A stretch of 45,982 bases of DNA from a virus. Where the stretch lies: the IMG/VR virus record IMGVR_UViG_3300047476_000780, positions 1-45,982 of that record. The stretch is one strand, 5' to 3'. This document shows, piece after piece, positions 17,901 through 40,316 of the stretch. A program made the position numbers and the translations under genes. Below the pieces are notes generated by a model, which saw only the letters and a list, made by a program, of their open reading frames with translations, was not told the DNA's origin and did no database searches. How positions within the stretch are numbered: the first letter of the stretch is position 1; each line of letters opens with the position of its first letter.

Positions 17901-20900
17901 TAGTGCGTCTGTTGTAAAGGAAGACCGACTTAATCTTTTCTAAATTAGGATGATCAATTTCTTTATGAATTTTTGTCCAGCTGTATGTTTCTACGCTTTG
18001 TTTGTTAAACTCATATACACGGCCTGCATTTGTATAGGATGTATCGCTTAACGGAGCAGAAGCAACTACAATATTAGCAGCAACATCAATTGCTGTACCA
18101 AAACTTGCATCAGAAACTGTTGCTAAGTCTAGGCTTTCACTATAGATCCAGCGTGTATCATATCTGTCGTATATATCAATTCGCTTACCAGAAGCACTTG
18201 CGGTATCGTTGCCGTAGACTACCAATGTCTTAGAATCGTTCATGAAGAACACTTTTGAGCCAAAGTCGCCGTCTTCTGCTGGATGTACGTTTCTAATATC
18301 TTGTTCAAGATTATATGCTGATGTACTAATCTTAAATACGCCAACCCATCCTTGATTTGCAGGATCTAAGCCTGTGTAATCTTTAGATGTTAGTGCAATA
18401 AATTCACCAGTAGAAGATACTGATACAGACTCACCATAAGATACGCCAGCTTCAAGATTTATTGCAAAGCTATTAAATTTTCCTTGAGTATCTTTTCTAT
18501 AGACAGAAACTTGCCCTACTGCAGACGCGGTTGTTATTACTAGTGTAGATTCGTCTTTGCTTAACTTAATTTCTTTACCAAACTCGGCACCTGATGGCAA
18601 CGACTTTTCGTAGTAGACCGCTACGCTGTTTTCTCTAGAGTATGACCAGCGTGTAACCTTAAAGGAAATTTGCCCCGAAGGCGTAACTGTTGGAGCAGAA
18701 CTTAATGTTATTTTCTTTCCTACAGTATCAATATTTTCAATAACTTGCCCTGTGAGGCCAACTCCGTATGCTGCCATACCTACTGCCAATCCAGTAACAC
18801 TTTGGAGGGCGATAGTAGTACCAGAGCTTCCGTTAGGGTTGTATGATGTTACTGCAACCGTATCAGTTTGATAGTTCACTTGGTAAACTCTACCAGTCGA
18901 AGAGTTCTTACCGATAGCGCCAATGAATAGTGTGTCGGTTCCAAACTCTAAAGAAGAACCAAACTTTTCATTAGCCGCTGGGTATGGACTAGTGAAACTG
19001 TGTACTACTGAATAGTTGTTACTAGAATCTTTCTTAAGAATTGTAACTACTCCTTGCTGTGCAAGTGCAGAGTTAGTGCCAGTCTCGGTATTGACTAGGT
19101 ATAAAGGATCACTGCTAGGTTGAGTTGCTGTGGCAATATTGCTGGCAAGCGGACTGCCTAACGCTAACCAAGTACCATCTGGAGACATTGCTACAACAGA
19201 GTGTGTTACACTGTCGCTGTTAGGGTTTCCAAATACAATATCAGTCTTTGCATAATCAATTCGAGGTAAAGTCTGTCTATGAGTCCACGGCAATGTAGGA
19301 ACTGGACGATCGTGTATTGTTACTTGGCCAACATCAGTAGCCACAGCCATTAAAGATCCAGATACATTAATAGAAATAGCGCGGCCAAATAGCTGATTGT
19401 TAGCTGGTTCAGGCGCAGAAATTTCTCCGGTATTATAAACAGGGTTGTATTCCCAAGTTCCCCACTTACCTTCTATATCAGAGTCTGTCCATAACAATTC
19501 ACCTACTTGTAGATCTGCAGGTATTACATCCTCAGCATCGTCAATTGTATTAGCACGTTGAGATACTAACTTATAAATTTCTACGCTAGCAGATTCTGTA
19601 AACGGATCAGTCCATGGCGAAACTTCCTTAGATACAACAAATGTGTTAGTGGCTACAGACACTACTTTAGCAAATCCGCTGATTGATGCTACTCCGGTAA
19701 TACCGATGTAATTCCCTGCTACAAAATCAATAACGTCGTCTGCACAAGTAAATGTAATTTGTTTAAGGCTTGTACTGTATGTTGCATTTGTAATTTGGAT
19801 TGATGTAGGTGAATATCTATATACATTCCACGACTGGCCTTCAAAACCAACCCAAACGTAGCTGCCTACAGAGTAGTTGCTAATAGACTCATTTGCAATT
19901 TCATCTATTGTAGTCAACACAGAAGTAACTTCATCTTCACGAACATGTCCAGGATTTCTTAAGAACAGCTTCGGAGTGTTGTTAATAGGCCATGGGTTAT
20001 TATTATAACCTAACGGCTTTAAGTAAACATCGTTAAGTGTTTGACGAGAAATAAAGTCAACTACGTTTGTATCAATTTTATCAACTAACTCAAATCCTTG
20101 AGGGTTACTCTTAAATTCAGCTTCGTCTAAGATAAATTCAATATTTTCAAAAGCTGCGTTAGCACCGTACTGGCCGACACGTACTGCCCATTCTTCGTAA
20201 AAGTCTAAACTTTCTTGTCCGTCTACACTTAACACATCGAACAGTTTGTTGAATACGTTTTGAGTGCCTTTCTCAATAATCATACCTTGATAGAACTTAA
20301 ACTCGCTAACATCGTCTTTAATAATGTTAGAGAGATACTGGCGACGTTGATAGCCAACTAGATGTTGAGCCATTTTTTGTTGACCTAGATCAAAGTTGTC
20401 GCTATCTAAACTATAGAAGTCAGTAAACTGTTCCGCCTTGTATGTCCAGTTTGGTAGAAGACGTTCTGTTGGTTTTTCTTCTAGTCTAATCCACTCGTTT
20501 GCAACAAATTCGTTTGAACCAACAATAAAAGATTTAGCTGTATAGTAAAATTCTTTGTGTTTAACAATATCGCCTAACGCATAGTCGGCCCAAGGTGTCC
20601 AGTCTGCTATCTTTGCTTGATCAAAGATAAATCCTGGAGCATCAAATGCTCCGTACCAACCTGTAGTAACATAACCAGATACTTTAATTCTCTCTTGTCT
20701 GTAACCACTTTCTGGATTATAAATTGTATCGTTAAAAAGTGTAGAGTTGTTAAACACAACTACATGTTCTTTCTGTATTAGATGAAACGTAGCAGCATAA
20801 ATGCCGTCAGTAGTTGCAGGAGAGTACTCTACTAGGTTTTCGTTTCTATAAGAATTTAACGAGTTAGGCGGAATTGGCGTTCCGTCAACTTTAAAAATTT

Positions 20901-23900
20901 CGTATGCATAGAACGGATTAATAATGTCGTCTGGAATAGACAATGGTGCATTGAAGGTTAACTTATTAGCAGAAGGACTCAAAGAAATTACAGAGCTGCC
21001 TACGCTGCTAAGACCATCTAACTTGACAAAGTCTTCTTCTCGGAAGACAGGGTCTGCAGAAACTTTTCTTATAGCTCTATAGTAGTCTCCGTTGTATCGA
21101 ACAATAGCTCCGAACTCAGTAGCAACTGTAGGATCCCATTCTTGCCACTTGTCTTGGCCGCTAGACCAATTCTGTGTAGTCCAGAATAAGAATTCTTTCG
21201 CACTAGTTTCCCAGTTAGTTACTTGCGATAATGGAACATTAAAGTCGTCAAATACAAATCCCTGGTCTTTTAACCACTCGCCGTACCCTGTTAAGAAGTC
21301 CACCACTTCTTGTACAGTCCTAAACTTAGTGCCGTATGGTACATCAATTGCTTCAGTTCTATCCCATGCTTTTCTAAGAACAGCATTCTTTCCGCCGACG
21401 ATAGGCAACCCGCTTAGTGGCTGGTATAACTGTGCATCAAAGGTTCCGCTGGTAGTGTGCAAAGACTTAACTCTATAGTACTTGTTATTATAGTTAACTA
21501 CTTTGTTAGCAGCGTATTGTTGCCCCGGTGTCCACAATACATACCCTTCAGATATACCGCCAACATTAATAGTAATGCCGGATTGTGTCCAAGCATAGTA
21601 TTTGAAGTACGGTTGAACTCTGCTGTAGCCTTTTACTTCAAAGCCGTCAGATAGTTTTGTAACAATAACAGCACTGTATGTTATTTTTTTAATTGGAGAA
21701 GATGAACTTAATACAATATCATAGTCTTCTTGCGGAACAAACACACTGCCTGTAGATAAAGGAGACTTGCTATCTAATAACAAGTTAAACTTTTCTTTGC
21801 TAGTAAATGCGCCTAAACGATAGCTTAGTTGTCCGTTTATGTTCTTTAAATCTTCTACATAAACATCGTACGACTTTAGGTTATCGCTTAAAATATAATT
21901 AAGGATGTAGTTAACAATACCAGCGGTTTGTACGTTGTCAGTACTTGAGTATATGCTAGGCAAGATTAAATCTGATGGCCTAATTCTCAAGTTAGTATCT
22001 TTGTAAACAACTTGCCCTGCAAGGTTCCTGACAATTCTCGATCTATCAAATAATACACCAAACACCGATGCTGGCTTTAGTAACATTGCTGTAACTAATA
22101 CACTGAAAGGATAGTGGCTGCTTCTTCTCCAAGCTGCTTCAATTGGGCTAACATCGCCGAATACAAAGTCGCCCGTGGTTGATTGTGTAATCACTCCAAC
22201 TGACAAGTTTGCTAATAGCGGGCTGATTAAATTACCGTTTTCGTCAACTGGAATACAGTCTATTAAGAACGGTCTTACATATTGTTCTAGCTTAACTGGA
22301 GGGACTCCCGGCTCTCTAACCATGCCTTCGGCTAAGTCTTTCCACATTACTCGGTTGTCACTTGTGTACGGTGCTGGTCCATATACACTTTCCCACCATA
22401 GCGGCTGTTCAGTAAAGCCCAAGCACTCCCAAGGACAAATGTTAGGACGGTCAGTATCTAGCATCCAGCGATAGATACCTCTCCAATATCCCGGAGTTTC
22501 TCTGCCGTCAGGAGCACTGTGACCCCTATAGTTAAAAGTTAGAGGATTATTTCTATCAAAGCTCAATGGCTTTGTAAAGTCGTTGTTTACTAAACTTGTC
22601 CACTTGTAGAAGCTTGGTGCTAATACTTCGTTAAATTCTTTTAGACTATACTCTGTATCTCTAATGTATGATGGCACTATTGCATTAATATCAAACAACG
22701 AAGGATCATATTTTACCTTAATGTTGTTATAGATTCGTTTCTCTAACTCTAAAATTAACGCATCTCTAAAGTCAGCTGTGCCGTTTTCGTCGTACGTACC
22801 GTATGCAAGTACTTGGCTACCGTCATGGCCTTGGATCATCCATCGAGGTGTAATTAAGCTAGTATCTAAGTATAGCTTAGGTTCGTACTTAGGCCAGATA
22901 CCTAACTTAGTAGGAGTCTCTGGAATGTAACATCCGTTTGTATTTTCGTATTCGTAAATTGTAACAATATCATTTTCTTCTAATGGTGCAGAAATTACTA
23001 CGAATCCCTGGTCACTAAATGTATATTGTCTTTCGTAAAGAAGTTGAGTATCATTTACATAGACGTAAACAGCCTTTGTTGTCAATGTGTCTAAATTATA
23101 AACAGCTGACAGCGGATATGTTTTAATTCTGCCATCAATTACTTTAAAGTCGTTGCGAATATTAGCACTATATCCTACCATATCGCTAAAGTAGTATGCT
23201 GATGTAGTAGGTTTATCTTTGTTAATTTCTTGTAAAATTAAATTAACTTGTGTAACTGTATCAGTATCAACGCCAAGAGTGTTAGCAACGGCAACAAAAT
23301 TTCTCTTAAATGCGTTGTACTGATCTCTTGCACTTTCAATAGATCTAATTACATTATTATTTTCAGATGTTAGATGATATAATGCAAGGCTTAATGGGCC
23401 GCTGTGCTGTACAAATTTAGTACCCAGAGTAGTAATGTTACCTAAGTCTCTAAGGTTACCAGGGCCTGGATATGCCCCAACAAATGCTGTAGCATTATCA
23501 ACAATAGAGCCAACGTGATCAATTACTTCACCTAATGTAAAGTCCCCTAACGCATTGTTTAAAGGATTATTTTGTAAGTTAATTGGTATTTCGTAATGCC
23601 CGTTACTGTTAATTGATTGCTTTGCAAATGCTCTAATTGTTAGGACATCGTTAACTGAAATGTCAGTGTTAAGAACAACTTTTTTATATACCGGGCCGTC
23701 AACTACTGTCCAGTTTGATTTATCTAATCTTATACCATTGATGTAAACACGGACTTCTAAATCAGCAAGATCAGTGATATCGTCAAAAATATCAACGTCA
23801 AAGTTGTTAACCTTGTTAGTATTTTTATAAATTCGTAATGCTGCTTGCGTTCTTGTAACCGAAGACTTTTGCCAACCGTTTACATAGTTAACTGTATCAA

Positions 23901-25803
23901 GGTCAACTGTTTTTACTAGGTAACCTGTGCTAATTGTTTTGTTGATAACATTAGTAATTTCTTTGTACTGGAACGTATCAGTAACAGCATTAAAGTTAAA
24001 AACAATATCCCCAACGTTGTTAATATTCTTGTAGGATAGCGCAAATCCAAGAGTAGAATCAGCTGCTCCGTTGCCTACCTTATAAGAAAATACAGGGGTG
24101 CCGGCAAACGTTGAACCGTCATAAACAGAATAATCACCAAAACTAATACCGCTATCATCAACAACGTCAAATAACGGTTGCTGATTTAATTTAGTTTTTT
24201 GTTGCGCTACTAACCAATTATCACCGTCGAACCAATAGGTAACACCTTGGTTTTTCATACCTTGGCGTACAATCACTGACTGGTTCTTAAGTGGTTCATC
24301 TTCAAGTACTAGGTGTATTTGTCTGCTTCCCTCGTTTAGGTGTCTAACATCAATAAACTCTACTCTATAAATTTTATTTCTTACAAAAGAATCAGTATCA
24401 GCGGCAAATAAAATTCGCTGTCCTTGTACTACCTGGACACCGTCAATGTTATAGCCCAAGCTACCTTCAATAGTTGAAAATACATCTGTAGTAAATGTAT
24501 CAATTAGATCAATATCATTAACCGCTACTTGACCAAAATTAAACAATTTCAAATCTGCTTCAAATTCGATAATAGGTCGTACAGCACGAGCGCTTTGGTC
24601 AACACTAGCAATTTTCTTATTAATTGTTGCGCTGGCTTCGATGACATCTTTATGGAACCATCTGTTATAACGACTCCACGGATTTCTATCTTTACTTGCT
24701 CGGTTAACTACGATATAATCAGACTTGCCAGCAAAGCTAGTTGCATCGCTAAATGGCATATTATCAAACGGTGTTGTATCAAACAACACAGCTTCTGAAT
24801 CTGTATAAGCACTGATAATTTCTAAAGTGGCTGCTGAAACTAATTTAATTCCGGTTCCAACGCCTTCAACATAATATTGCCCGCTAGCATAAGACTCAGG
24901 AGTAACTTTTCCAATGAAGGAAACTCTCATTCCATTACTGAGTTCTTCGCCTGTAGATAACTTATAGGTCTTTTTTCCTAAGAGCTCTTGGTCAATATTA
25001 ATTGCTGTATTTTCTTCAATTGCCTTAACATGGATTACACCGCCAAGGTCAATGTCTGTTTCGCTAAGATAGTATAATACATCAGGTGAGTCAAACGGCA
25101 CTGTGAATGTAATAGTACCTTCTTTAACAGCATGGTCCAACCCTAGTGCTTGATAGCGTTCGACTGTGCCACTAACTCGTGCGGTTTTAATACTAAAAGG
25201 ATTACCTGGACTGTTAATCTCAAACTTATATGTTTGGCCTCTATATAGCGTTAATGTCGGATTGCGTGTTAATCCGTTCGGTGTAAACAGATACTGGTTG
25301 TTATCAAGCTGTGACTCGATCGACACTGTATATGTACTAACGATTGCCTGTTGCTGTCCTGCAACCTTAACTAAATCAGGCCCGTAAGGCAACCAGTAAT
25401 AGTTTTGAAAGTTTACAAACTTATCCCAATCAATATGTGGATCCCAAGAATAAAATTCTTGTTCGTTAATGCGAGAATGATTCTTAACATTACCGCCAAA
25501 GACATCAACTTGATTAACATAGTCTTGGTAGTCTTTGAAGAAAGTGGTATTACCTAACTCGTCTTTGATAACAAAGCTAGGCTCTAATTGATAGTTTTCT
25601 CTAAAGGCACTAGGCGCTTTGACAAAAATGTCGCTGCCTACAGTAGCCTTCGAATTGCGTCTACCAATATAACCGTTAACTTTTTGTACTGTGCCGGGCT
25701 GTATTAGCTGATCAAGTGTTGCTTGAAGGAATTTCTTGTTAGCATCTGATCTGTAAAAACGAGGTAATAATTCAGATGTTTTAATTTTCTTCGAATCAGC
25801 CAT
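11902..25803 (-). CDS. Giant 4633-residue tail/baseplate structural protein
   Basis: One unbroken 13.9-kb frame just after gene 6 (8-base overlap; GGAG seven bases before ATG 25803). T4 has gene 7 here (about 1030 residues, baseplate wedge), so the N-terminal part may replace gp7; this is inference from order. Residues 1-150 (SELLPRFYRSDANKKFL, TLDQLIQPGTVQKVNGYIG, WDPHIDWDKFVNFQNYYWLP) form a conserved-looking start I associate with cyanophage structural proteins. Further modules: aromatic beta-modules near 1423, 1555, 1733 and 4497 (pattern W-x-Y-x-x-G-x-x-V-x-x-x-x-x-x-Y), a seven-repeat FG-GAP-like propeller at about 2130-2602, two GxGY repeats near 3000 and 3361-3425, and beta-sandwich-like repeats in the last 1200 residues, several opening VADG or NGT. 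Low in cysteine, no signal peptide. It probably spans the baseplate rim and a fibre-like arm that contacts the host. Confidence 0.75.
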   Translation of the reverse strand: MADSKKIKTSELLPRFYRSDANKKFLQATLDQLIQPGTVQKVNGYIGRRNSKATVGSDIFVKAPSAFRENYQLEPSFVIKDELGNTTFFKDYQDYVNQVDVFGGNVKNHSRINEQEFYSWDPHIDWDKFVNFQNYYWLPYGPDLVKVAGQQQAIVSTYTVSIESQLDNNQYLFTPNGLTRNPTLTLYRGQTYKFEINSPGNPFSIKTARVSGTVERYQALGLDHAVKEGTITFTVPFDSPDVLYYLSETDIDLGGVIHVKAIEENTAINIDQELLGKKTYKLSTGEELSNGMRVSFIGKVTPESYASGQYYVEGVGTGIKLVSAATLEIISAYTDSEAVLFDTTPFDNMPFSDATSFAGKSDYIVVNRASKDRNPWSRYNRWFHKDVIEASATINKKIASVDQSARAVRPIIEFEADLKLFNFGQVAVNDIDLIDTFTTDVFSTIEGSLGYNIDGVQVVQGQRILFAADTDSFVRNKIYRVEFIDVRHLNEGSRQIHLVLEDEPLKNQSVIVRQGMKNQGVTYWFDGDNWLVAQQKTKLNQQPLFDVVDDSGISFGDYSVYDGSTFAGTPVFSYKVGNGAADSTLGFALSYKNINNVGDIVFNFNAVTDTFQYKEITNVINKTISTGYLVKTVDLDTVNYVNGWQKSSVTRTQAALRIYKNTNKVNNFDVDIFDDITDLADLEVRVYINGIRLDKSNWTVVDGPVYKKVVLNTDISVNDVLTIRAFAKQSINSNGHYEIPINLQNNPLNNALGDFTLGEVIDHVGSIVDNATAFVGAYPGPGNLRDLGNITTLGTKFVQHSGPLSLALYHLTSENNNVIRSIESARDQYNAFKRNFVAVANTLGVDTDTVTQVNLILQEINKDKPTTSAYYFSDMVGYSANIRNDFKVIDGRIKTYPLSAVYNLDTLTTKAVYVYVNDTQLLYERQYTFSDQGFVVISAPLEENDIVTIYEYENTNGCYIPETPTKLGIWPKYEPKLYLDTSLITPRWMIQGHDGSQVLAYGTYDENGTADFRDALILELEKRIYNNIKVKYDPSLFDINAIVPSYIRDTEYSLKEFNEVLAPSFYKWTSLVNNDFTKPLSFDRNNPLTFNYRGHSAPDGRETPGYWRGIYRWMLDTDRPNICPWECLGFTEQPLWWESVYGPAPYTSDNRVMWKDLAEGMVREPGVPPVKLEQYVRPFLIDCIPVDENGNLISPLLANLSVGVITQSTTGDFVFGDVSPIEAAWRRSSHYPFSVLVTAMLLKPASVFGVLFDRSRIVRNLAGQVVYKDTNLRIRPSDLILPSIYSSTDNVQTAGIVNYILNYILSDNLKSYDVYVEDLKNINGQLSYRLGAFTSKEKFNLLLDSKSPLSTGSVFVPQEDYDIVLSSSSPIKKITYSAVIVTKLSDGFEVKGYSRVQPYFKYYAWTQSGITINVGGISEGYVLWTPGQQYAANKVVNYNNKYYRVKSLHTTSGTFDAQLYQPLSGLPIVGGKNAVLRKAWDRTEAIDVPYGTKFRTVQEVVDFLTGYGEWLKDQGFVFDDFNVPLSQVTNWETSAKEFLFWTTQNWSSGQDKWQEWDPTVATEFGAIVRYNGDYYRAIRKVSADPVFREEDFVKLDGLSSVGSSVISLSPSANKLTFNAPLSIPDDIINPFYAYEIFKVDGTPIPPNSLNSYRNENLVEYSPATTDGIYAATFHLIQKEHVVVFNNSTLFNDTIYNPESGYRQERIKVSGYVTTGWYGAFDAPGFIFDQAKIADWTPWADYALGDIVKHKEFYYTAKSFIVGSNEFVANEWIRLEEKPTERLLPNWTYKAEQFTDFYSLDSDNFDLGQQKMAQHLVGYQRRQYLSNIIKDDVSEFKFYQGMIIEKGTQNVFNKLFDVLSVDGQESLDFYEEWAVRVGQYGANAAFENIEFILDEAEFKSNPQGFELVDKIDTNVVDFISRQTLNDVYLKPLGYNNNPWPINNTPKLFLRNPGHVREDEVTSVLTTIDEIANESISNYSVGSYVWVGFEGQSWNVYRYSPTSIQITNATYSTSLKQITFTCADDVIDFVAGNYIGITGVASISGFAKVVSVATNTFVVSKEVSPWTDPFTESASVEIYKLVSQRANTIDDAEDVIPADLQVGELLWTDSDIEGKWGTWEYNPVYNTGEISAPEPANNQLFGRAISINVSGSLMAVATDVGQVTIHDRPVPTLPWTHRQTLPRIDYAKTDIVFGNPNSDSVTHSVVAMSPDGTWLALGSPLASNIATATQPSSDPLYLVNTETGTNSALAQQGVVTILKKDSSNNYSVVHSFTSPYPAANEKFGSSLEFGTDTLFIGAIGKNSSTGRVYQVNYQTDTVAVTSYNPNGSSGTTIALQSVTGLAVGMAAYGVGLTGQVIENIDTVGKKITLSSAPTVTPSGQISFKVTRWSYSRENSVAVYYEKSLPSGAEFGKEIKLSKDESTLVITTASAVGQVSVYRKDTQGKFNSFAINLEAGVSYGESVSVSSTGEFIALTSKDYTGLDPANQGWVGVFKISTSAYNLEQDIRNVHPAEDGDFGSKVFFMNDSKTLVVYGNDTASASGKRIDIYDRYDTRWIYSESLDLATVSDASFGTAIDVAANIVVASAPLSDTSYTNAGRVYEFNKQSVETYSWTKIHKEIDHPNLEKIKSVFLYNRRTSKLLSYLDVIDSSQGKIAGLAEQELKYKTFYDPATYCTPLNNVTPDATVNIDNGMAWTKAQVGRLWWDLRTAKFINSYDADIVYRNSTWNTLFPGSSIDVYEWVESTLKPSAWDEQADTEAGIALGISGTSLYGDSAYSYEVKYDNVSKTKKYTYYYWVKNKKTIPAVPDRKLSGQDVADLISNPRGEGYRYLALTGTNSFTLVNAKPILEDKDVVLSIEYWTTENTNQNIHTEWKLISNNINTIIPTRIEDKWYDSLCGKDFNDRLVPDMSLPPKLRYGIEFRPRQSMFINRFEALKQFVEQVNLVLKDNQITNQKDLSLFESYDPEPNNTTGLYDAVLDSDLELRFASVGSFRRPEIAPIIENGEITGVDIIGAGSGYVTAPYFTIVGAGTGAKIRAQINTRGQLIGAEVLSKGKGYTSSTTLLIRDYSVLVHTDTQALDAWSIYSYDPSTLTWSRSRSQAFDTRRYWEYVDWYATGYNQFTAIDHVVDTFSGLNLVTPKVNQLVKVKTNNNGYWVLLKKYQDSSSIDWTQSYTVVGSQNGTLQLKSSLYSFSDTSYGYDGSLYDGSVFDNSASKELRNILNALKNSVLTDTLKETYLELFFGSVRYALSEQGYVDWIFKTSFVKAQHNVGDLRQDVTYNNDNLSDFEAYVAEVKPYRTKVREYVSSYTELETSRSSVTDFDLQPIFENNSLGVITTSVVNDAIQADNALITSYPWKHWLDNVGFEVTELRIIDNGSQYITEPVIRFVGSCTEPATARAFISNGKVNRVVLLSPGKGYLKAPTVLIEGGILPEGSSAKAVAIIGNSVVRSNLIKMKFDRITKSYFITELEHTETFVGTGTRVQWPLQWAPDIKVGNSSVTVAGVDVLRSDYTLKITKSTSRGYTAYAGSITFDTAPLKGETIVVTYLKDWSLLNSADRIQFYYNPESGYVGKDLSQLMTGIDYGGVIVDGIGFDVGQGWDSLPYFSDKWDSFDALFDDFITTVDAGAHQFRLPYVPEVGTEINVYHSVLLSQEYVSNGTDVEYVFPEYNSGLHITVTKPVSTTRTIVAGSLILTVDNTTTISVGDIVTCDILDKFNANTTVTEIVSATSVKVDQVVLSDISASTTIKFTRTLTENVDYNADLFTTIVFENPIEANSVIKITSLLRPVRIEQSLVHFGTTYVDPSNNGVADGTTQFVSISDSVTVGASDQFILRKSTSDGSITPANDDYDTSLQGGNLAYTTASGLRAEDIIVDGDGLVTPTTSPAPEEVVPGQVVDALAIKVYERPLYSSAAIKVDTYVADGSNRLYAISQTPNSPQAVVVKITNGNGTTVLTQVDEYVVDYVAQTVELLVAPAVGDVVSVFSFGFNGSNILDIDYFVADGVTSEFVTKAPWTDSFTSLVYIDGLPATPEVFETDSSYSSSKRIGLRFGGEIVEGSVINFVIVAGAEQTFAITKTEKIEPTGETIYNLENVVGNATPIETNMIVRVGQQILKAANNSYFTIGSNRLNYAIDATKASPFSVEVDNIVVIAAGTKLVIGLDYTIDLSGITVKINRKTYQKYSGQQLVVSIIQEQEYTYLPPAGGFGARIQFVNAPTEVVEVISSYKHDILDVRRTDINVTSDVAFVADTLEYYAYKEVAGGILQLTRSVLGDSYVWVTKNGTLLTPGVDYRITDDKNSVKLAYNPEADDQFTVITFSNQVSQTNIAYMQFKDMLNRVHFKRLSMSKRAKLSKGLAQTDITIEVDDASNFDEPNPLLNRPGIIEIAGERIEYFSKNGNILGQLRRSTLGTGARSYYDVGTYVQDIGSSETIPYSEEESIEQVISTGSTTLNLKFTPMADVIANGHSVTKVSDWIADGYTSDFPVDYVQADDIEVFVGGYEVTADWAPNVSYAAGIIVVHGSYAYKCLTSHTSSAKFSADSAKWQFFVGNIRLKKHPYKVHDVSVHSESPEGDIQLDAEFAVSGTSNQIRLTHPLKVGTRVTVVKRKGIVWDNTADLTTDQTKIGEFLRAESGIWYVDFKG

Positions 25804-34615: not shown

Positions 34616-34643
34616 TGACTTTTTTATGTGCGTAGTTTATAAT
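34615..34643 (+). promoter_or_regulatory. Sigma-70-like promoter for the 55-47-46 operon
   Basis: TTGACT (34615-34620), a 17-base spacer, then TATAAT (34638-34643): five of six and six of six matches to the bacterial housekeeping consensus with ideal spacing. Transcription would start near 34650, leaving a leader containing CCGGAGAG before the ATG at 34666. This rules out the upstream ATG at 34642. An early or middle timing is inferred from use of unmodified host-type elements. Confidence 0.8.
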
Positions 34644-34665
34644 GTATCATCCGGAGAGTAATTTA

Positions 34666-35511
34666 ATGACAATAACAACACCAAAGGTTAACTATCTAAA
34701 CAATAAGGACATGCTAGCAGAAATACACAAATCAAAGAGCTCGTATTGTGTTTTTACCAAGCCAGAATATCATCAATATGACATTATTTTGCCAAGTTTA
34801 GACAAAATTAACATACGCACGATAGCCGAAGCTAAAAGGAATCAGGCGAAAAGACTGTCAGATTTGGACTATCAAACTCGCAAAAAAGCTGGTGAAAAAG
34901 TCAAACAAGCCGACTGCGAAGTTGACTATAAGAAGATTGCTAAGACAGATTTAGTCTTTAGAATCATGACGTTTGACCATATTCCGCTTAATAGTACACG
35001 CAAAAAGAACCCTAAAAGCCTAGCAGATCACCGCGATAAGGTAAACTTTCCACCGTTTCAACATTGGAAATTCAATGACGCTGACGAACTAGTATGCGTT
35101 GGAAAATCGCACTGGAAGGGTGATCTAGAAAAAGGACACTTTGACAAAGATGCTGGGCAAATTACAGATACACTAGCCCGTATGATGATTAAGCTCTGTG
35201 AGCGCTATGCTACTAGAGGAAACGTTCGTGGTTACACTTACAACGACGAAATGAAGGGGCAAGCAATCCTTCAACTAACTCAAATAGGACTGCAATTCGA
35301 TGAAAGTAAATCTGATAATCCTTTTGCTTACTTTACTGCTGCTGTCACTAATTCATTCGTTAGAGTTATCAACCTTGAGAAACGTAATCAAAACATTAGA
35401 GACGACATACTGGAGATGAACGGTATGAACCCAAGCTATTCTAGAACTGGTCAGGGTGAACACGAAGCTGCCATGAAACGATACAGCGAAAGCGAAGGAT
35501 CAAGCGAATGA
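34666..35511 (+). CDS. 55: Late-transcription sigma factor gp55
   Basis: 281 residues from ATG 34666, chosen because GGAG is nine bases upstream and the promoter -10 overlaps the other ATG (34642). gp55 is a minimal sigma-70 relative that directs host RNA polymerase to TATAAATA late promoters with gp33 and the sliding clamp. The sigma region is at the C-terminal half: MMIKLCERYATRGNVRGYTY, NDEMKGQAILQLTQIGLQFD, NPFAYFTAAVTNSFVRVINL, then EKRNQNIRDDILEMNGMNPS. T4 gp55 is 185 residues; the extra N-terminal 150 residues (phage-specific, with a KPEYHQYDIILP segment) are usual in aquatic relatives. ATGA overlap with gene 47. Nothing here shows gp33. Confidence 0.88.
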   Translation: MTITTPKVNYLNNKDMLAEIHKSKSSYCVFTKPEYHQYDIILPSLDKINIRTIAEAKRNQAKRLSDLDYQTRKKAGEKVKQADCEVDYKKIAKTDLVFRIMTFDHIPLNSTRKKNPKSLADHRDKVNFPPFQHWKFNDADELVCVGKSHWKGDLEKGHFDKDAGQITDTLARMMIKLCERYATRGNVRGYTYNDEMKGQAILQLTQIGLQFDESKSDNPFAYFTAAVTNSFVRVINLEKRNQNIRDDILEMNGMNPSYSRTGQGEHEAAMKRYSESEGSSE

Positions 35512-36521
35512 GTAATTTGTTTAAAAAAGTAGCATGTTTTACAGATATCCATTTTGGATTAAAGTCGAACAGCCAAGTACACAATCAGGACTGTGAAGAG
35601 TTTGTAGATTGGTATATTGCAAAAGCAAAGGAAGAAGGATGTGACACAGGAATTTTTCTCGGTGATTGGCACCACAATCGTAACAGTCTTAATATCACTA
35701 CTATGGACTATAGCCTTAGGGCCCTGGAAAAGCTCGGTGCGGCGTTCGATCAATTTTATTTCTTTCCTGGCAATCACGATCTGTATTACAAAGATAAACG
35801 AGACATCCATTCCGTCGAATTCGGAAAATATATTCCCGGAATCACTATTGTACATGAGCCTACCACCATTGGCAACGTTACTTTATGCCCGTGGCTCGTC
35901 GGGGAAGAGTGGAAACAAATAGGTAAGAAAAAAGCTGACTATGTGTTTGGCCACTTTGAATTACCGCACTTCTACATGAACGCAATGGTGCAGATGCCGG
36001 ATCACGGAGAAATCCAACTCGATGCTTTTGAAGGCTACAAGATGGGTTTCAGCGGGCACTTCCACAAGCGACAGAGTAAGGGCAATATGCACTACATCGG
36101 TAATGCGTTCCCGCACAACTATGCAGATGCGTGGGATGACGATCGTGGGATGATGATTTTAGAATGGGGCGGTGAGCCAGAGTATCATGCATGGCCTAAT
36201 CAGCCTACATTCCGAACAGTTAAACTAAGCCAGTTAATCGACGAAGCAGACACGCTAATCAAACCCAAACAACATTTGCGAGTCACGTTAGATATTGACA
36301 TTACTTACGAAGAAGCAAGTTTTATCAAAGAGAAGTTTATTTCCGACTACGACATTAGAGAACTTACTCTAATTACCGAAAAGAAGGAAGTCGAAATTAA
36401 CACAAGTATCGATGTTCAAAGCTTCGAATCTGTTGATCAGATTGTGTCCAGTCAGATTGTAAACATCGAGTCAGACACGTATAATAAGAATACGCTACTA
36501 GCGATCTATAATAGCCTATGA
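35508..36521 (+). CDS. 47: Recombination nuclease subunit gp47 (Mre11/SbcD-like)
   Basis: 337 residues, the same as T4 gp47's usual size. gp47 is the metal-dependent exonuclease subunit acting with gp46 to resect DNA ends for recombination-dependent replication. Phosphoesterase motifs are in order: FTDIHFG (D13, H15), LGDWHHN (D53, H55), PGNHDLY (N89, H90, D91), FGHFELPH (H149) and SGHFHKR (H184, H186). ATG overlaps the gene 55 stop and its stop overlaps the gene 46 start (ATGA both times), so the three are coupled. Confidence 0.93.
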   Translation: MSNLFKKVACFTDIHFGLKSNSQVHNQDCEEFVDWYIAKAKEEGCDTGIFLGDWHHNRNSLNITTMDYSLRALEKLGAAFDQFYFFPGNHDLYYKDKRDIHSVEFGKYIPGITIVHEPTTIGNVTLCPWLVGEEWKQIGKKKADYVFGHFELPHFYMNAMVQMPDHGEIQLDAFEGYKMGFSGHFHKRQSKGNMHYIGNAFPHNYADAWDDDRGMMILEWGGEPEYHAWPNQPTFRTVKLSQLIDEADTLIKPKQHLRVTLDIDITYEEASFIKEKFISDYDIRELTLITEKKEVEINTSIDVQSFESVDQIVSSQIVNIESDTYNKNTLLAIYNSL

Positions 36522-38296
36522 TAAAAATTAAAAATTTAACCGTTAAAAACTTCATGAGCGTGGGCAACCAAACTCAAGCTGTTGACTTTAGTAAGGAAAA
36601 CTTAACTTTGGTTTTAGGTGAGAACTTAGACCAAGGCGGCGATGATTCTGGCTCAAGGAACGGTACAGGTAAAACAACTATTGTTAATGCGCTAAGTTAT
36701 GCGCTGTTTGGCAATGCGTTAACTAATATCAAAAAAGACAACTTGATTAATAAAATCAACAACAAGAATATGTTGGTTACGTTAGCGTTTGAAAAAGACG
36801 GTATTGACTATCGCATCGAGCGAGGTAGGAAACCTAACGTCTTAAAATTCTACGTTAATGATCAAGAGCAGGAAACAGACGAAAGCGATGACGCCCAGGG
36901 CGACATGCGAGAAACACAGAAGGACTTAGATGATTTATTAGAAATGAGTCATGATATGTTCAAGCATGTTGTTGCGCTCAATACCTATACTGAGCCGTTC
37001 CTTAGTATGCGATCTGGCGATCAACGAGTAATTATTGAACAGTTACTAGGCATCACTATTCTTAGTGAAAAAGCAGAAGCACTAAAAGAGTTGATCCGTC
37101 AAACTAAAGAAGCAATTACACAAGAAACCGCCAACATCGAAGCTGCTAAAAAGTCTAACGAAAAGATCCAGCAGAGTATTGATGCATTACTTACTAGACA
37201 AAAAGCGTGGAATAACCAGCACGAAGTCGACCTTGAAAAGATCGCTAGGGCTATTGTAGAACTAGAAAGTGTTGATATTGAGGCAGAACTTTCCGCACAC
37301 GCATTGCTAAAAACATATCTTGAGCAATCCGCAAAACTAAAGAGTCTGCACAAAGAACGTGCGACGCTAGAAAGCGCGGTAGCGCAAGCGGAGCGAAGCG
37401 TAAAAAAATACGCGAGCGAGCTTGCAGCCTTAGACGGTAAAAAGTGCCACGCTTGTGAACAAGATCTTCACGATCACAAGCATGAAGAAATGTCAGCTAA
37501 GGCTAAAGAACACTTAGCAGAAGCAGAGAAATATCGTGATAAAGTACAAGCTGATCTTGAAAAGATCACAGCAGAAATTTCATCTATCGGTGATGTTTCT
37601 GCTAGGCCCAACACTTATTACGATACTGTTGAAGAAGCTCTCAAGCATCAAAATAATTTAAAAACTCTTGAAACACAGTTGACTATCAAGGCAGCTGAAA
37701 CAGATCCGTATCAAGAGCAAATTGACGAGCTTACTGATACAGCTATGCAGGAAGTCAGCTGGGATCAAGTTAATGCACTCAACAGCGTTAAGGAACATCA
37801 AGAATTCTTGCTTAAACTGTTGACCAGCAAAGACAGCTTTATTCGTAAGAAGATCATTGATCAGAACTTAGCTTATTTGAACAATAGACTAACTTACTAT
37901 CTAGACAAGATGGGCTTGCCGCACACTGTTACTTTCCAGAACGATCTAACTGTTGAAATTATGCAACTAGGTCAGGACTTAGACTTTGACAACTTGTCCA
38001 GAGGCGAACGCAATCGTTTGATCCTGGGCTTATCTTGGGCATTCCGCGATGTATGGGAAAGCCTGTATCAGAACATCAATCTGCTGTTTATTGACGAGTT
38101 AGTTGACAACGGTCTAGACGCTTCGGGTGTCGAAAGTGCCCTAGCTGTCTTGAAGAAGATCAGTCGTGAACGTAAGAAGAACGTGTTCTTGATCAGTCAC
38201 AAGGACGAGCTAATTGGTCGTGTTAACAATGTGCTTAAAGTTGTCAAAGAAAACGGCTTTACCAGCTATGCTACAGACTTAGAGGTTAATGAGTAA
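36518..38296 (+). CDS. 46: Recombination ATPase subunit gp46 (Rad50/SbcC-like)
   Basis: 592 residues. ABC-type SMC ATPase that drives the gp47 nuclease. Walker A is GSRNGTGKTT at 45-54, followed by a coiled coil (about 180-300), a zinc hook CHAC at 310-313, a second coiled coil (about 320-440), signature LSRGERNRL near 493, Walker B LLFIDELVDNGLD near 522 and the H-loop LISHKDEL near 560. All catalytic elements are present. The DNA encoding the stretch just before the hook contains an unusually GC-rich palindrome (37384-37425). It follows gene 47 with an ATGA overlap and precedes a small gene with a TAATG overlap. Confidence 0.93.
   Translation: MIKIKNLTVKNFMSVGNQTQAVDFSKENLTLVLGENLDQGGDDSGSRNGTGKTTIVNALSYALFGNALTNIKKDNLINKINNKNMLVTLAFEKDGIDYRIERGRKPNVLKFYVNDQEQETDESDDAQGDMRETQKDLDDLLEMSHDMFKHVVALNTYTEPFLSMRSGDQRVIIEQLLGITILSEKAEALKELIRQTKEAITQETANIEAAKKSNEKIQQSIDALLTRQKAWNNQHEVDLEKIARAIVELESVDIEAELSAHALLKTYLEQSAKLKSLHKERATLESAVAQAERSVKKYASELAALDGKKCHACEQDLHDHKHEEMSAKAKEHLAEAEKYRDKVQADLEKITAEISSIGDVSARPNTYYDTVEEALKHQNNLKTLETQLTIKAAETDPYQEQIDELTDTAMQEVSWDQVNALNSVKEHQEFLLKLLTSKDSFIRKKIIDQNLAYLNNRLTYYLDKMGLPHTVTFQNDLTVEIMQLGQDLDFDNLSRGERNRLILGLSWAFRDVWESLYQNINLLFIDELVDNGLDASGVESALAVLKKISRERKKNVFLISHKDELIGRVNNVLKVVKENGFTSYATDLEVNE
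37384..37425. repeat. GC-rich nested palindrome inside gene 46
   Basis: GCAAGC (37384-37389) pairs with GCTTGC (37420-37425), and inside it GCGTA (37398-37402) pairs with TACGC (37409-37413) around six A's. The segment is rich in AGCG/GCGA words, unlike the AT-rich surroundings, and resembles the words at 39378-39438. It is in frame and encodes part of the coiled coil just before the zinc hook. A small mobile palindromic element or a constraint from RNA structure are both possible. Confidence 0.5.
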
Positions 38297-38547
38297 TGAG
38301 GCAAGAGGAAGAGCTACACGATCAGCTCTTAAAGAAGTTTAGGGAATATTTTGAGGCAAATCAAAAATGGTTAGGCACAGGCACTAAACGTAGTGCCATC
38401 GAACTTAGGCGCATCATGAGTGAAATCCGAAAAATCTGTAGCGAACGACGAATTGTTGTTCGCGAATGGATGGATTGGAAAGAGGCAGAATTATTAGAAC
38501 GTAACATAAAACGCAAAGGCCAAAATTCCACCGATGGAGAAGAATAG
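38296..38547 (+). CDS. Small conserved phage protein after gene 46 (83 residues)
   Basis: Highly charged, helical protein: LHDQLLKKFREYFEANQKWL, then GTGTKRSAIELRRIMSEIRK, ICSERRIVVREWMDWKE. I recall similar small proteins following gene 46 in T4-like aquatic phages, without known function. Start overlaps the gene 46 stop (TAATG). The Arg/Lys-rich middle could contact nucleic acid (inference). A 9-bp hairpin (arms GCGAACGAC and GTTGTTCGC, 38441-38463) lies within the gene. Confidence 0.7.
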   Translation: MRQEEELHDQLLKKFREYFEANQKWLGTGTKRSAIELRRIMSEIRKICSERRIVVREWMDWKEAELLERNIKRKGQNSTDGEE

Positions 38548-38562
38548 TATGGTATATAGTTC

Positions 38563-39003
38563 ATGTCATGGACTTACCAGAATTCTATTGTTGAAGTATT
38601 ACCAGAAGACTGCGTAGGCTTCGTGTACATCATCACAAATCTCATCAGTGGACGCAAATATATAGGCAAGAAACTAGCCAAATTTTCTAAAACAACCTAT
38701 AAAACAGTAAAACTTAAAAACGGCACCAAAAAGAAAAAGAAGATTAGAAGTAAGATCGATAGCGATTGGCAAGAATACTATGGATCAAGCCCTAATCTAC
38801 AGGCAGACATAGACACACTAGGCAAAGAAAACTTTAGTAGAGAGATACTTTTTTACTGTAAATCCAAGGCAGAATGCTCTTACATCGAAGCAAGAGAACA
38901 GTTTACAAATCGTGTTCTTGAAAGCGACGAATGGTACAACGGGCATATTCAAGTTCGCGTCCACGGCTCCCACATCAAAGGCAAGATACAACTTAACGGT
39001 TAA
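38563..39003 (+). CDS. GIY-YIG nuclease-domain protein
   Basis: 146 residues. GFVYIITNLISGRKYIGKK gives the two motif strands (VYI 21-23, YIG 33-35). A Lys-rich loop (NGTKKKKKIRSKIDSDW), YYGSSPNLQADI, FSREILFYCKSKAECSYIEA (with a candidate catalytic Glu in YIEA) and WYNGHIQV follow. The family cuts DNA; relatives in phages are free-standing homing-type or repair-type endonucleases. It is too short to carry a long DNA-binding tail, so a Seg-type homing nuclease is less likely than a compact phage endonuclease. It starts 15 bases after the previous gene, with only a weak ribosome-binding site. Its stop codon directly abuts the closing helix of the putative structured RNA. Confidence 0.8.
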   Translation: MSWTYQNSIVEVLPEDCVGFVYIITNLISGRKYIGKKLAKFSKTTYKTVKLKNGTKKKKKIRSKIDSDWQEYYGSSPNLQADIDTLGKENFSREILFYCKSKAECSYIEAREQFTNRVLESDEWYNGHIQVRVHGSHIKGKIQLNG

Positions 39004-39270
39004 GCTAGCGCAGGCCAATATCGTGCGCCCAAGTCCCTGGTGATGTCGCAGGGTAAGGAAATCTCTCGCCGTAGTGAGTACTCAGCAACTATCCTTAACA
39101 GGACGATGATCAGATATGCCTTCATAAAACTGGTTTTGCTGTTTAAGACAATTTCAAAAGGCTAAAAGAGGGTTAATAGCCCACGGCTGTACAGATGATA
39201 GCGTATTTGTGCAGACCCGCCGTTGTAATAAGACGGAGTGAGCAGGTACCGGATAACCGCCTGCGCTAGT
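39004..39270 (+). ncRNA. Putative structured RNA following the GIY-YIG gene
   Basis: No ORF of 60 codons or more fits this interval. CTAGCGCAGGC (39005-39015), directly after the GIY-YIG stop codon, is perfectly complementary to GCCTGCGCTAG (39259-39269); a flanking G-U adds a twelfth pair. Inside are local helices: CCCTG/CAGGG (39035-39039, 39049-39053), TCCT/AGGA (39092-39103), GGCTA/TAGCC (39160-39164, 39177-39181), CTGTACA/TGTGCAG with one wobble (39187-39193, 39208-39214) and CCGT/ACGG (39220-39223, 39233-39236). GC content is visibly higher than in neighbouring genes. I looked for tRNA, tmRNA, RNase P and group I intron cores and did not find them. Strand is assumed from the neighbours; promoter not identified. 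Could be a new phage RNA, a diverged known class, or a large 3'-UTR structure. Confidence 0.55.
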
Positions 39271-39480
39271 AGAAATACTTGTAGCTCTAACGCTGTGTGA
39301 CACATGTTCGACTCAGATAATGTTCATTTCTTGGCCCGCTAGGGCTAAGTGTGACTGAACGATCTAGATAATATCTTAAACGCTTCGCGTTTTATCATGT
39401 GTATAAAATAAAGAAAAGTTCGAGCGATAGCGAAGAACAGATGAACGTAGTTCATCTTAACACTGACTAAATATTAGATT
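39271..39480. other. Non-coding stretch with three strong hairpins
   Basis: This 210-base stretch holds no gene. Three hairpins stand out: TTGGCCC/GGGCTAA around a GCTA loop (39331-39348, seven pairs with one wobble); AAACGC/GCGTTT around TTC (39378-39392), followed by one further T; and AGATGAAC/GTTCATCT around GTA (39439-39457). The second and third resemble terminators but have short T-runs. Between them lies GCGATAGCG-type sequence like that in gene 46. The interval may hold the 3' domain or terminator of the putative RNA and then the leader of the next gene. Confidence 0.5.
39466..39473 (+). promoter_or_regulatory. T4-type late promoter
   Basis: ACTAAATA, 21 bases before the ATG at 39495. 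It matches the CTAAATA/TATAAATA late-promoter style and the spacing of the other late promoters here. It would drive the 273-residue internal-protein candidate. Confidence 0.5.
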
Positions 39481-39494
39481 ACGAGACAATCACT

Positions 39495-40316
39495 ATGAAG
39501 ATTTACGACATTATAACCCCGACAGAACAAATTGATGAAGGTGTATTATCTAAAGCACTTGCGTCTTTGATGAAAAGCGGTGCTAAAAAAGCTGCTCCTA
39601 AAGTGGTTGCTAAAGCAGCAGCAGGTGGTGTTGTCCGTATGAGCACTGCAATATTCTCTGCTCTTAAGATGCTGGGTATTGGCGTTTTTATCATGGACTA
39701 TTACAAGCAGATGAAAGCAGCCGACGCTAAATTATCTTCAGGTGTATGGACACAGGACAAATATGACGATTTCCGTCAACAACAGATGACTATCTTAACT
39801 AGCCAGTTATTAGCTAGTACTGTGTTATTTGGCGCACTAAAGACAGTCACAGGGTTTAATCTGTTTACTAAAATCCTATCTATGTCTCGTTACACCCGAC
39901 CAGTTTCACAGCTTTTTGCAGGTGTTGCAGGTACAGCACAACTGGCTTTAATATACAAGCTACAAACTAACGAAGGTAGAAAGTACGTTGCTGATCTTAT
40001 TGGCACTGGTATTGTAGATGATGTTTTAGGCGGTGGCGGAGTTGCGCTATTAGATAGGGCTAAAGAGTTTGTTGGCCTTGCAGACAAAGAAGCTCGTTTA
40101 GAAAGAGAAAAACAAGCTGCAGAAAAACGTGCCGCTGACGAAGAAGAACTAAACAAGCAAGATCCGGACAACGGCAAAACACCGATTAAGCCTAGCGATA
40201 GAGGTATGGTTGGTACAGCACAGCCTAAGACTACTGGAAGTAGCAATCCTAACCTACAAAGAGATCCAAACGGTGAACTAGTTTGGGGACTAAATCCTGC
40301 ACTAATGAAAAAATAA
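39495..40316 (+). CDS. Probable internal head protein with capsid-targeting propeptide
   Basis: 273 residues. The N-terminus MKIYDIITPTEQIDEGVLSK looks like a T4-type capsid targeting sequence (internal proteins begin MK-x-Y-x-x-F/I and end in I/L-x-E before the prohead protease cut): IDE at 13-15 followed by G would be a gp21 cleavage site. Three hydrophobic helices follow, at about 49-68, 98-121 and 136-156, then a charged tail (about 185-215) and a Pro/Gly-rich C-terminus ending NPALMKK. Such a protein could be packaged in the head and injected with the DNA, the helices perhaps acting on the host membrane. A holin-like role is a weaker alternative. Its stop codon abuts the convergent gene's stop without a gap. 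Confidence 0.6.
   Translation: MKIYDIITPTEQIDEGVLSKALASLMKSGAKKAAPKVVAKAAAGGVVRMSTAIFSALKMLGIGVFIMDYYKQMKAADAKLSSGVWTQDKYDDFRQQQMTILTSQLLASTVLFGALKTVTGFNLFTKILSMSRYTRPVSQLFAGVAGTAQLALIYKLQTNEGRKYVADLIGTGIVDDVLGGGGVALLDRAKEFVGLADKEARLEREKQAAEKRAADEEELNKQDPDNGKTPIKPSDRGMVGTAQPKTTGSSNPNLQRDPNGELVWGLNPALMKK

What the first reader, a model, noticed from the sequence alone, without database searches (positions are those of the whole stretch)
39004..39270. Structured RNA candidate closed by an 11-bp long-range helix after a GIY-YIG gene
A 267-base interval without an ORF begins at the base after the GIY-YIG stop codon with CTAGCGCAGGC and ends with its exact complement GCCTGCGCTAG. Several local helices fit inside. 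A 491-base gap is extraordinary in a phage where nearly all genes overlap or abut, and its GC content is higher than the flanks. It does not match tRNA, tmRNA, RNase P or group I intron cores that I know. Nuclease-plus-RNA pairs are known for other endonuclease families (HNH-associated HEARO RNAs), so a GIY-YIG-linked RNA would be new, but the link here is adjacency only.
Basis: partly seen in the sequence, partly recalled or inferred. Interest (0 to 1): 0.75.

Follow-up and report, generated by a model that had tools for sequence, protein, structure and literature searches.

The report
Twin-box RNA in phages and islands
The gap after the nuclease gene holds a real, elaborately folded RNA of a family named in 2010 whose function is unknown; it is about three times longer than described, ends in two short boxes that always match each other, and also sits in bacterial mobile islands behind what looks like a phage late promoter, which makes a phage-versus-parasite role testable.

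Summary
The RNA is real but the proposed closing helix is not. The interval matches Rfam RF01718 (Polynucleobacter-1) at 91.8 bits, so the family is known; its model covers only the first 141 of about 470 nt. In 132 relatives the 11-bp helix occurs in 2. Its strands belong instead to local helices with abundant compensatory changes, inside a fold with two pseudoknots. The 3' part carries two direct repeats: their 7-nt boxes (AGATAAT here) are identical to each other in 132 of 132 phage RNAs although the sequence varies.

The GIY-YIG gene lies just upstream in 102 of 103 informative phage contigs. One phage carries the RNA elsewhere, and bacterial copies lack a conserved GIY-YIG gene, so it is no general partner. 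Bacterial copies (19 of 186 genomes of one Burkholderiaceae genus, probably Polynucleobacter) lie in a conserved integrative island with tyrosine recombinases, DUF6641 and, in most, a clamp-loader-like ATPase. All 23 copies checked follow a T4-type late-promoter sequence ([AC]TAAATA). I infer a trans-acting RNA of T4-like phages, also carried by a candidate satellite of such phages, whose boxes are read by one cognate partner. The partner and function are not shown.

The parts
38994..39458 (+). full extent of the conserved structured RNA (ends approximate, no transcript data)
   Evidence: conserved across 132 phage RNAs; bacterial profile matches 39311-39464 on its own
39003..39144 (+). Rfam RF01718 Polynucleobacter-1 match, positions 1-141 of 141
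   Evidence: 91.8 bits, E 1.7e-18, cut-off 37
38996..39072 (+). outer helix of the 5' domain, 38996-38999 with 39069-39072; its 5' strand lies in the last codons of the GIY-YIG ORF
   Evidence: covariation, 85-96% paired; CTACTG/CAGTAG and CTACCG/CGGTAG in bacterial copies
39008..39028 (+). hairpin helix 39008-39012 with 39024-39028 (uses the 5' strand of the proposed 11-bp helix)
   Evidence: 97.5% paired, 4 of 5 pairs with changes on both sides
39083..39141 (+). helix 39083-39088 with 39136-39141
   Evidence: 97.9% paired, 5 of 6 pairs with changes on both sides
39108..39135 (+). helix 39108-39113 with 39130-39135
   Evidence: 98.8% paired, 4 of 6 pairs with changes on both sides
39187..39214 (+). 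long hairpin whose loop forms the first pseudoknot
   Evidence: 94.2% paired, 9 of 9 pairs with changes on both sides
39198..39296 (+). pseudoknot helix 39198-39204 with 39290-39296
   Evidence: 98.2% paired, 6 of 7 pairs with changes on both sides
39222..39263 (+). second pseudoknot: 39222-39226 with 39253-39257, crossed by 39243-39247 with 39259-39263 (the latter uses the 3' strand of the proposed 11-bp helix)
   Evidence: about 87-100% paired, with compensatory changes in both
39295..39322 (+). direct repeat 1: GTGTGAC - ACTC - box 1 AGATAAT (39315-39321)
   Evidence: box identical to box 2 in 132 of 132 phage RNAs
39327..39349 (+). hairpin between the repeats (TTGGCCC-GCTA-GGGCTAA)
   Evidence: counterpart TGAGCC...GGCTCA in bacterial copies
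39349..39373 (+). direct repeat 2: GTGTGAC - ATCT - box 2 AGATAAT (39366-39372)
39380..39390 (+). small covarying hairpin ACGC-TTC-GCGT
39439..39457 (+). 3'-terminal covarying hairpin AGATGAAC-GTA-GTTCATCT; not a canonical intrinsic terminator
   Evidence: covariation; no terminator-like site found
39467..39473 (+). T4-type late promoter CTAAATA of the following gene
   Evidence: same motif ahead of 6 other window genes; present in 108 of 149 relatives
38563..39003 (+). GIY-YIG endonuclease ORF (SegE type), 146 aa
   Evidence: PF19835 E 6.7e-33; YIG region and other motif residues conserved in 79 sequences
39495..40316 (+). fast-changing late gene downstream; N terminus resembles a T4 capsid-targeting peptide
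   Evidence: found in 1 of 94 relatives at this place; MKIYDI-like starts
34642..38547 (+). upstream same-strand genes: late sigma factor, gp47- and gp46-like, 83-aa ORF

Best explanation
This is a long member of the Polynucleobacter-1 RNA family: a stand-alone, trans-acting structured RNA of about 470 nt. A 5' domain and a double-pseudoknot core form a scaffold that presents two identical 7-nt boxes on either side of a hairpin. One cognate partner, most likely a dimeric phage or element protein (or one nucleic-acid target bound twice), reads both boxes, which is why they change together. In the phage the RNA is probably made by read-through of the late sigma, gp47, gp46, nuclease gene block. 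In the bacterial island it is probably made from a T4-type late promoter, that is, only when a T4-like phage infects. The island, a candidate satellite, thus carries its own version of a phage RNA with its own boxes and uses it in the late phase of infection. Shown: family membership, fold, boxes, both contexts, promoter motif. Inferred: RNA product, trans action, partner, satellite nature and late role. I put about 0.6 on the trans-acting two-box RNA and about 0.35 on the satellite-competition role.
For: RF01718 match. Fold: 94.8% of cells paired, 34 of 47 pairs with changes on both sides, 332 such cells against 92 in shuffles, and all slid controls far lower. Boxes identical in 132 of 132 phage RNAs across 5 sequence variants; 21 inferred changes per repeat on a tree of the rest of the RNA, never one repeat alone; first 7 nt also identical in 17 of 20 bacterial copies, with other sequences. 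Bacterial copies in an island with DUF6641, RNA, variable slot, XerC/D-like recombinase, then two ORFs of unknown function and usually a clamp-loader-like ATPase, with differing outer flanks (PHROG 168, E 1.3e-23). [AC]TAAATA before all 23 copies checked, including a much diverged one, and at -24 before one island gene (6 of 6), but before only 10 of 151 flanking genes. CTAAATA and TATAAATA are known T4-group late promoters (PMC1524935).
Against: No transcript data. No partner or target was found: reverse complements of the boxes are not enriched downstream of the phage RNA or in the islands. Three of 20 bacterial copies have non-identical boxes. The late-promoter motif is short and the 23 copies are related, so they are not independent. 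Phage infection of these hosts is not shown. No canonical terminator was found. Shared box variants could partly reflect recombination of the whole 3' module.
Confidence: 0.6

Rival explanations
1. Guide-like RNA: the two boxes base-pair with DNA or RNA targets, as bridge RNAs or other dual-guide RNAs do, directing a recombinase or nuclease.
For: Two short boxes with changing sequence in an otherwise conserved scaffold, next to recombinases in the islands.
Against: No matching target found; boxes are only 7 nt and change slowly; the recombinases are tyrosine recombinases, not the IS110 kind.
Confidence: 0.15
2. The RNA is the guide or partner of the GIY-YIG nuclease, like omega RNAs of IscB or TnpB.
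For: The RNA overlaps the 3' end of the nuclease gene and follows it in 102 of 103 phage contigs; nuclease motif residues are conserved.
Against: Bacterial copies have no GIY-YIG gene among the conserved island genes; one phage has the RNA elsewhere; phages can keep the nuclease without a detectable RNA; gp46 and others are as tightly linked.
Confidence: 0.07
3. Cis-acting control element of a neighbouring mRNA (the 2010 survey table marks the motif as likely cis-regulatory).
For: The survey's rating (PMC2864571); position between two same-strand genes in the phage.
Against: The next phage gene usually has its own late promoter after the RNA (108 of 149) and changes from phage to phage; in the islands the next gene varies and is often on the other strand.
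Confidence: 0.13
4. The boxes matter as DNA: direct repeats are sites for a replication initiator or recombinase, and the RNA is an origin primer or a bystander.
For: Direct repeats with concerted change resemble iterons; transcripts prime T4 origins (general knowledge); satellites have their own origins (PMC7145576; PMC10448857).
Against: Heavy compensatory changes show that an RNA fold is selected upstream of the repeats; no further box copies nearby.
Confidence: 0.12
5. Decoy or processed substrate: the boxes are cutting or binding sites of an RNA-cleaving enzyme, as in type III toxin-antitoxin RNAs, and the hairpin between them is released.
For: Two identical sites flank a hairpin, and sites would change with the enzyme.
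Against: No toxin or nuclease shared by both contexts was found; the large scaffold is unexplained.
Confidence: 0.1
6. One reading: an RNA of 39004-39270 closed by the 11-bp helix.
For: Exact complementarity in the window; the energy-minimum fold of the window alone uses it.
Against: Kept in 2 of 132 relatives, no covariation, both strands pair elsewhere.
Confidence: 0.01

Closest known systems
Rfam RF01718, Polynucleobacter-1 RNA (Weinberg et al. 2010, PMC2864571)
   Same: Full-length match at 91.8 bits; the same helices at 39008-39028, 39083-39141 and 39108-39135
   Different: The model stops at 141 nt; the pseudoknot core, the twin boxes, the 3' hairpins and the phage and island contexts lie outside it, and the held library has only that one paper on the family
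Bridge RNA of IS110 elements (PMC11208160)
   Same: A structured RNA in mobile DNA carrying two short recognition segments
   Different: No IS110 recombinase, no matching target found, the two segments are identical to each other
HEARO / omega RNAs and TnpB guide RNAs
   Same: An RNA beside (TnpB: overlapping the 3' end of) a nuclease gene
   Different: No Rfam match, different nuclease, no hypervariable guide end, RNA also occurs without the nuclease
GOLLD and ROOL large phage RNAs
   Same: Large structured RNA in phage DNA
   Different: No Rfam match even at E 5; no tRNA in the window
PLE satellites of phage ICP1 (PMC7145576) and phage nucleases aimed at satellites (PMC10448857)
   Same: An integrated island that appears tied to a lytic phage; nuclease genes sit near such conflicts
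   Different: The island here is not shown to move or to be induced; different genes; shares an RNA with the phage

Membership tests
RF01718 Polynucleobacter-1 | Covariance score above the family's cut-off (37 bits) | tested here: met
   91.8 bits in the window; 37 of 50 related phage records; bacterial copies over the cut-off 70-104 bits
RF01718 Polynucleobacter-1 | Family helices conserved with compensatory changes | tested here: met
   three model helices 97-99% paired with changes on both sides
HEARO / IscB or TnpB omega RNA | Match to the family model | tested here: not met
   only RF01718 and one chance hit at E up to 5
HEARO / IscB or TnpB omega RNA | Adjacent RuvC-type nuclease (IscB or TnpB) | tested here: not met
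   the neighbour is a GIY-YIG protein
IS110 bridge RNA | Adjacent IS110 (DEDD) recombinase | tested here: not met
   none beside the RNA in the phage; tyrosine recombinases in the islands
IS110 bridge RNA | Two loops pairing with target and donor DNA | tested here: inconclusive
   two boxes exist but no target was found
Group I intron, tmRNA, RNase P, GOLLD, ROOL | Match to the family model | tested here: not met
Phage satellite (bacterial island) | Recombinase or integrase and variable chromosomal location | tested here: met
   XerC/D-like recombinase in 20 of 20, larger integrase in 17, differing outer flanks
Phage satellite (bacterial island) | Phage-type promoters | tested here: met
   TAAATA before the RNA in 23 of 23 and before orf124 in 6 of 6; promoter activity not tested
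Phage satellite (bacterial island) | Induction, replication and packaging by a helper phage | not testable with these tools
   needs infection experiments
Phage satellite (bacterial island) | Attachment sites at the ends | not tested
   boundaries were not mapped

The most novel reading that the evidence does not exclude
An RNA with two self-matching specificity boxes shared by a T4-like phage clade and a family of bacterial satellites of such phages: each genome carries its own box sequence, and the RNA marks or recruits phage late machinery (replication, late transcription or packaging) to its own genome, so the island uses a re-coded copy to divert a helper phage.
Probability: 0.2. Interest if true: 0.88.

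Novelty: new variant of a known kind. Interest (0 to 1): 0.62.

Why it matters
RF01718 has had no known function since 2010. Placing it in T4-like phages and in a bacterial island behind phage-type late promoters, and showing that the described model is only the first third, turns an orphan motif into a testable phage-biology question. The perfectly matched, jointly changing boxes are an unusual feature that points to a specific partner. If the island is a satellite of T4-like phages, an RNA common to helper and parasite would be a rare handle on how such parasites tie in to a lytic phage.

Tried and rejected
The 11-bp closing helix was tested and rejected. Target searches with the boxes: no partner downstream of the phage RNA, in the window or in the islands. 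The window's own ATTATCT in the start of ORF 39495-40316 looked like a target, but relatives do not share it. Phage isolates with GIY-YIG relatives (Melnitz, cyanophages, Sinorhizobium, Acidovorax and others; 10 records searched whole) have no convincing RNA match. A nucleotide search of public phages and plasmids gave nothing. The pattern scan of bacterial genomes used too short a pattern and returned only chance hits. DUF6641 was not found in 20 phage records. Its predicted model (pLDDT 79.5) has no solved relative. A DNA repeat flanking the cargo slot was not found. A target-site duplication was rejected because the repeats and the hairpin between them are conserved throughout. A fourth candidate helix, 39237-39240 with 39284-39287, was not supported on the counted alignment (17% paired).

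Full report
What was claimed and what is there. The interval, the complementarity (39005-39015 with 39259-39269), the 491-base gap and the higher GC are real, and the sequence folds better than shuffles. Rfam finds RF01718 (Polynucleobacter-1) at 39003-39144 with 91.8 bits against a cut-off of 37. The family dates from a 2010 survey that lists it as a probable RNA, probably cis-regulatory, from Burkholderiales and fresh water (PMC2864571). No other paper in the held library names it.

The window. It is a 45,982-base virus record of a T4-like phage: portal, baseplate, gp46- and gp47-like genes and a late sigma factor are present. The RNA follows a same-strand block of late sigma factor, gp47, gp46, an 83-aa ORF and the GIY-YIG gene.

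Relatives. The nuclease protein brought in 80 virus loci. RF01718 was found in 37 of 50 whole records searched, one match in each. Conserved DNA continues to about 39460, three times the length of the Rfam model. A scan with a pattern from the 3' part of the RNA, independent of the nuclease, gave 119 further loci, all with the RNA.

Fold. From 132 non-redundant RNAs I computed covariation. Counted on a separate alignment of 40 of them, a structure of 47 pairs has 94.8% of cells paired, 34 pairs with changes on both sides and 332 such cells against 92 in shuffles; sliding the partners destroys it. One of its helices, 39237-39240 with 39284-39287, is not supported on that alignment (17% paired). 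The fold includes two pseudoknots. The outer helix of the 5' domain uses the last codons of the nuclease gene, so gene and RNA overlap. The 11-bp helix is kept in 2 of 132 sequences and shows no covariation.

Twin boxes. The 3' domain has two direct repeats, GTGTGAC...ACTC-box and GTGTGAC...ATCT-box, around a hairpin. In all 132 aligned phage RNAs the two 7-nt boxes are identical, although the sequence occurs in five forms (AGATAAT, GGATAAT, GGATGAT, GAATAAT, AGATGAA). On a tree built from the rest of the RNA about 21 changes are inferred in each repeat, always in both. Exchange of the whole module between phages may account for part of this. Bacterial copies keep ACTC and ATCT but have other boxes (AGCGAAA, AACAAAA, AGAGAAA, ATCAAAA), identical in 17 of 20 copies.

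The nuclease link. With the RNA as bait the GIY-YIG gene is upstream in 102 of 103 contigs with room for it, but gp46 is in 92 of 92 and the baseplate gene in 86 of 89, so this is general synteny. The one exception, L181, carries the RNA among unrelated genes. L009, L013 and L028 have another gene between nuclease and RNA. More distant nuclease relatives in phage isolates have no convincing RNA match in their genomes.

Bacterial copies. In 20 of the 21 bacterial regions examined the RNA sits between DUF6641 (opposite strand) and a slot with differing genes, followed by a short XerC/D-like recombinase; beyond it come two ORFs of unknown function and, in 18, an AAA ATPase (this block is inverted in a few), and in 17 a larger integrase lies at one end or both; outer flanks differ. 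The ATPase is closest to phage clamp loaders (PHROG 168, E 1.3e-23) and distantly matches clamp-loader-sized ORFs of several phages. A more diverged GC-rich copy (L377) also has DUF6641 and matching boxes (GGCGAAAG twice).

Phage-type promoters in the island. Seven window genes, including virion genes, have TAAATA 12-35 nt upstream, the T4 late promoter type; CTAAATA is the form described for phage Aeh1 (PMC1524935). All 23 bacterial RNAs that could be checked, L377 included, have [AC]TAAATA upstream of the RNA, as does one island gene (orf124) at -24 in 6 of 6 cases. The other island genes rarely do, and flanking genes do in 10 of 151. Orf124 begins MKMYEI or MRMYEI, like the phage genes that follow the RNA (MKIYDI and similar), which look like T4 capsid-targeting starts; that last step is resemblance only.

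Reading. The simplest account is a trans-acting RNA that presents two boxes to one cognate partner, used by T4-like phages and by an island that appears to respond to them. The RNA product, its partner, its action in trans, its late role and the satellite nature of the island are inferences. Guide, cis-regulatory, DNA-site and decoy readings remain possible and are scored separately.

Limits. There are no expression data. Related sequences are not independent, so counts such as 23 of 23 and 132 of 132 overstate the number of events. Virus records are often fragments, so absence is weak evidence. Island ends were not mapped. The match of the bacterial profile to the window is modest outside the Rfam region (E 7.9e-5 for 39311-39464).

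Noticed in passing
L336-L341 and L361-L374: A conserved integrative island in probable Polynucleobacter genomes: DUF6641, this RNA, a variable slot, XerC/D-like recombinase, clamp-loader-like ATPase in most, integrase, and phage-type late promoters at two places; a candidate satellite of T4-like phages.
   Followed up: partly
window 39495-40316 and the matching place in relatives: The gene after the RNA is replaced from phage to phage but often keeps a T4-type late promoter and an MKIYDI...E-like start resembling capsid-targeting peptides, so it may be a slot for internal head proteins.
   Followed up: partly
L341 6349-6987, and the first gene after the RNA in L361, L362, L370, L374: Several slot proteins of the bacterial islands look strongly acidic by eye, which might mean DNA-mimic or counter-defence proteins; not tested.
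   Followed up: no
L181: A phage contig with the RNA among unrelated genes, with no GIY-YIG gene; the clearest natural separation of the two.
   Followed up: partly
L009, L013, L028: A gene is inserted between the GIY-YIG gene and the RNA.
   Followed up: partly
public records H6-H55: Relatives of this GIY-YIG protein are widely annotated as NAD synthetase in GenBank and RefSeq, an apparent mislabel that has spread (also the description of PHROG 447).
   Followed up: no
window 11902-25803: A single open frame of 4633 aa on the - strand, about 30% of the window; not examined.
   Followed up: no
L367, first gene after the RNA: The slot gene of one island seems to begin with a different GIY-YIG-like domain (GIYIL and LYIGEG motifs seen by eye); not tested.
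   Followed up: no
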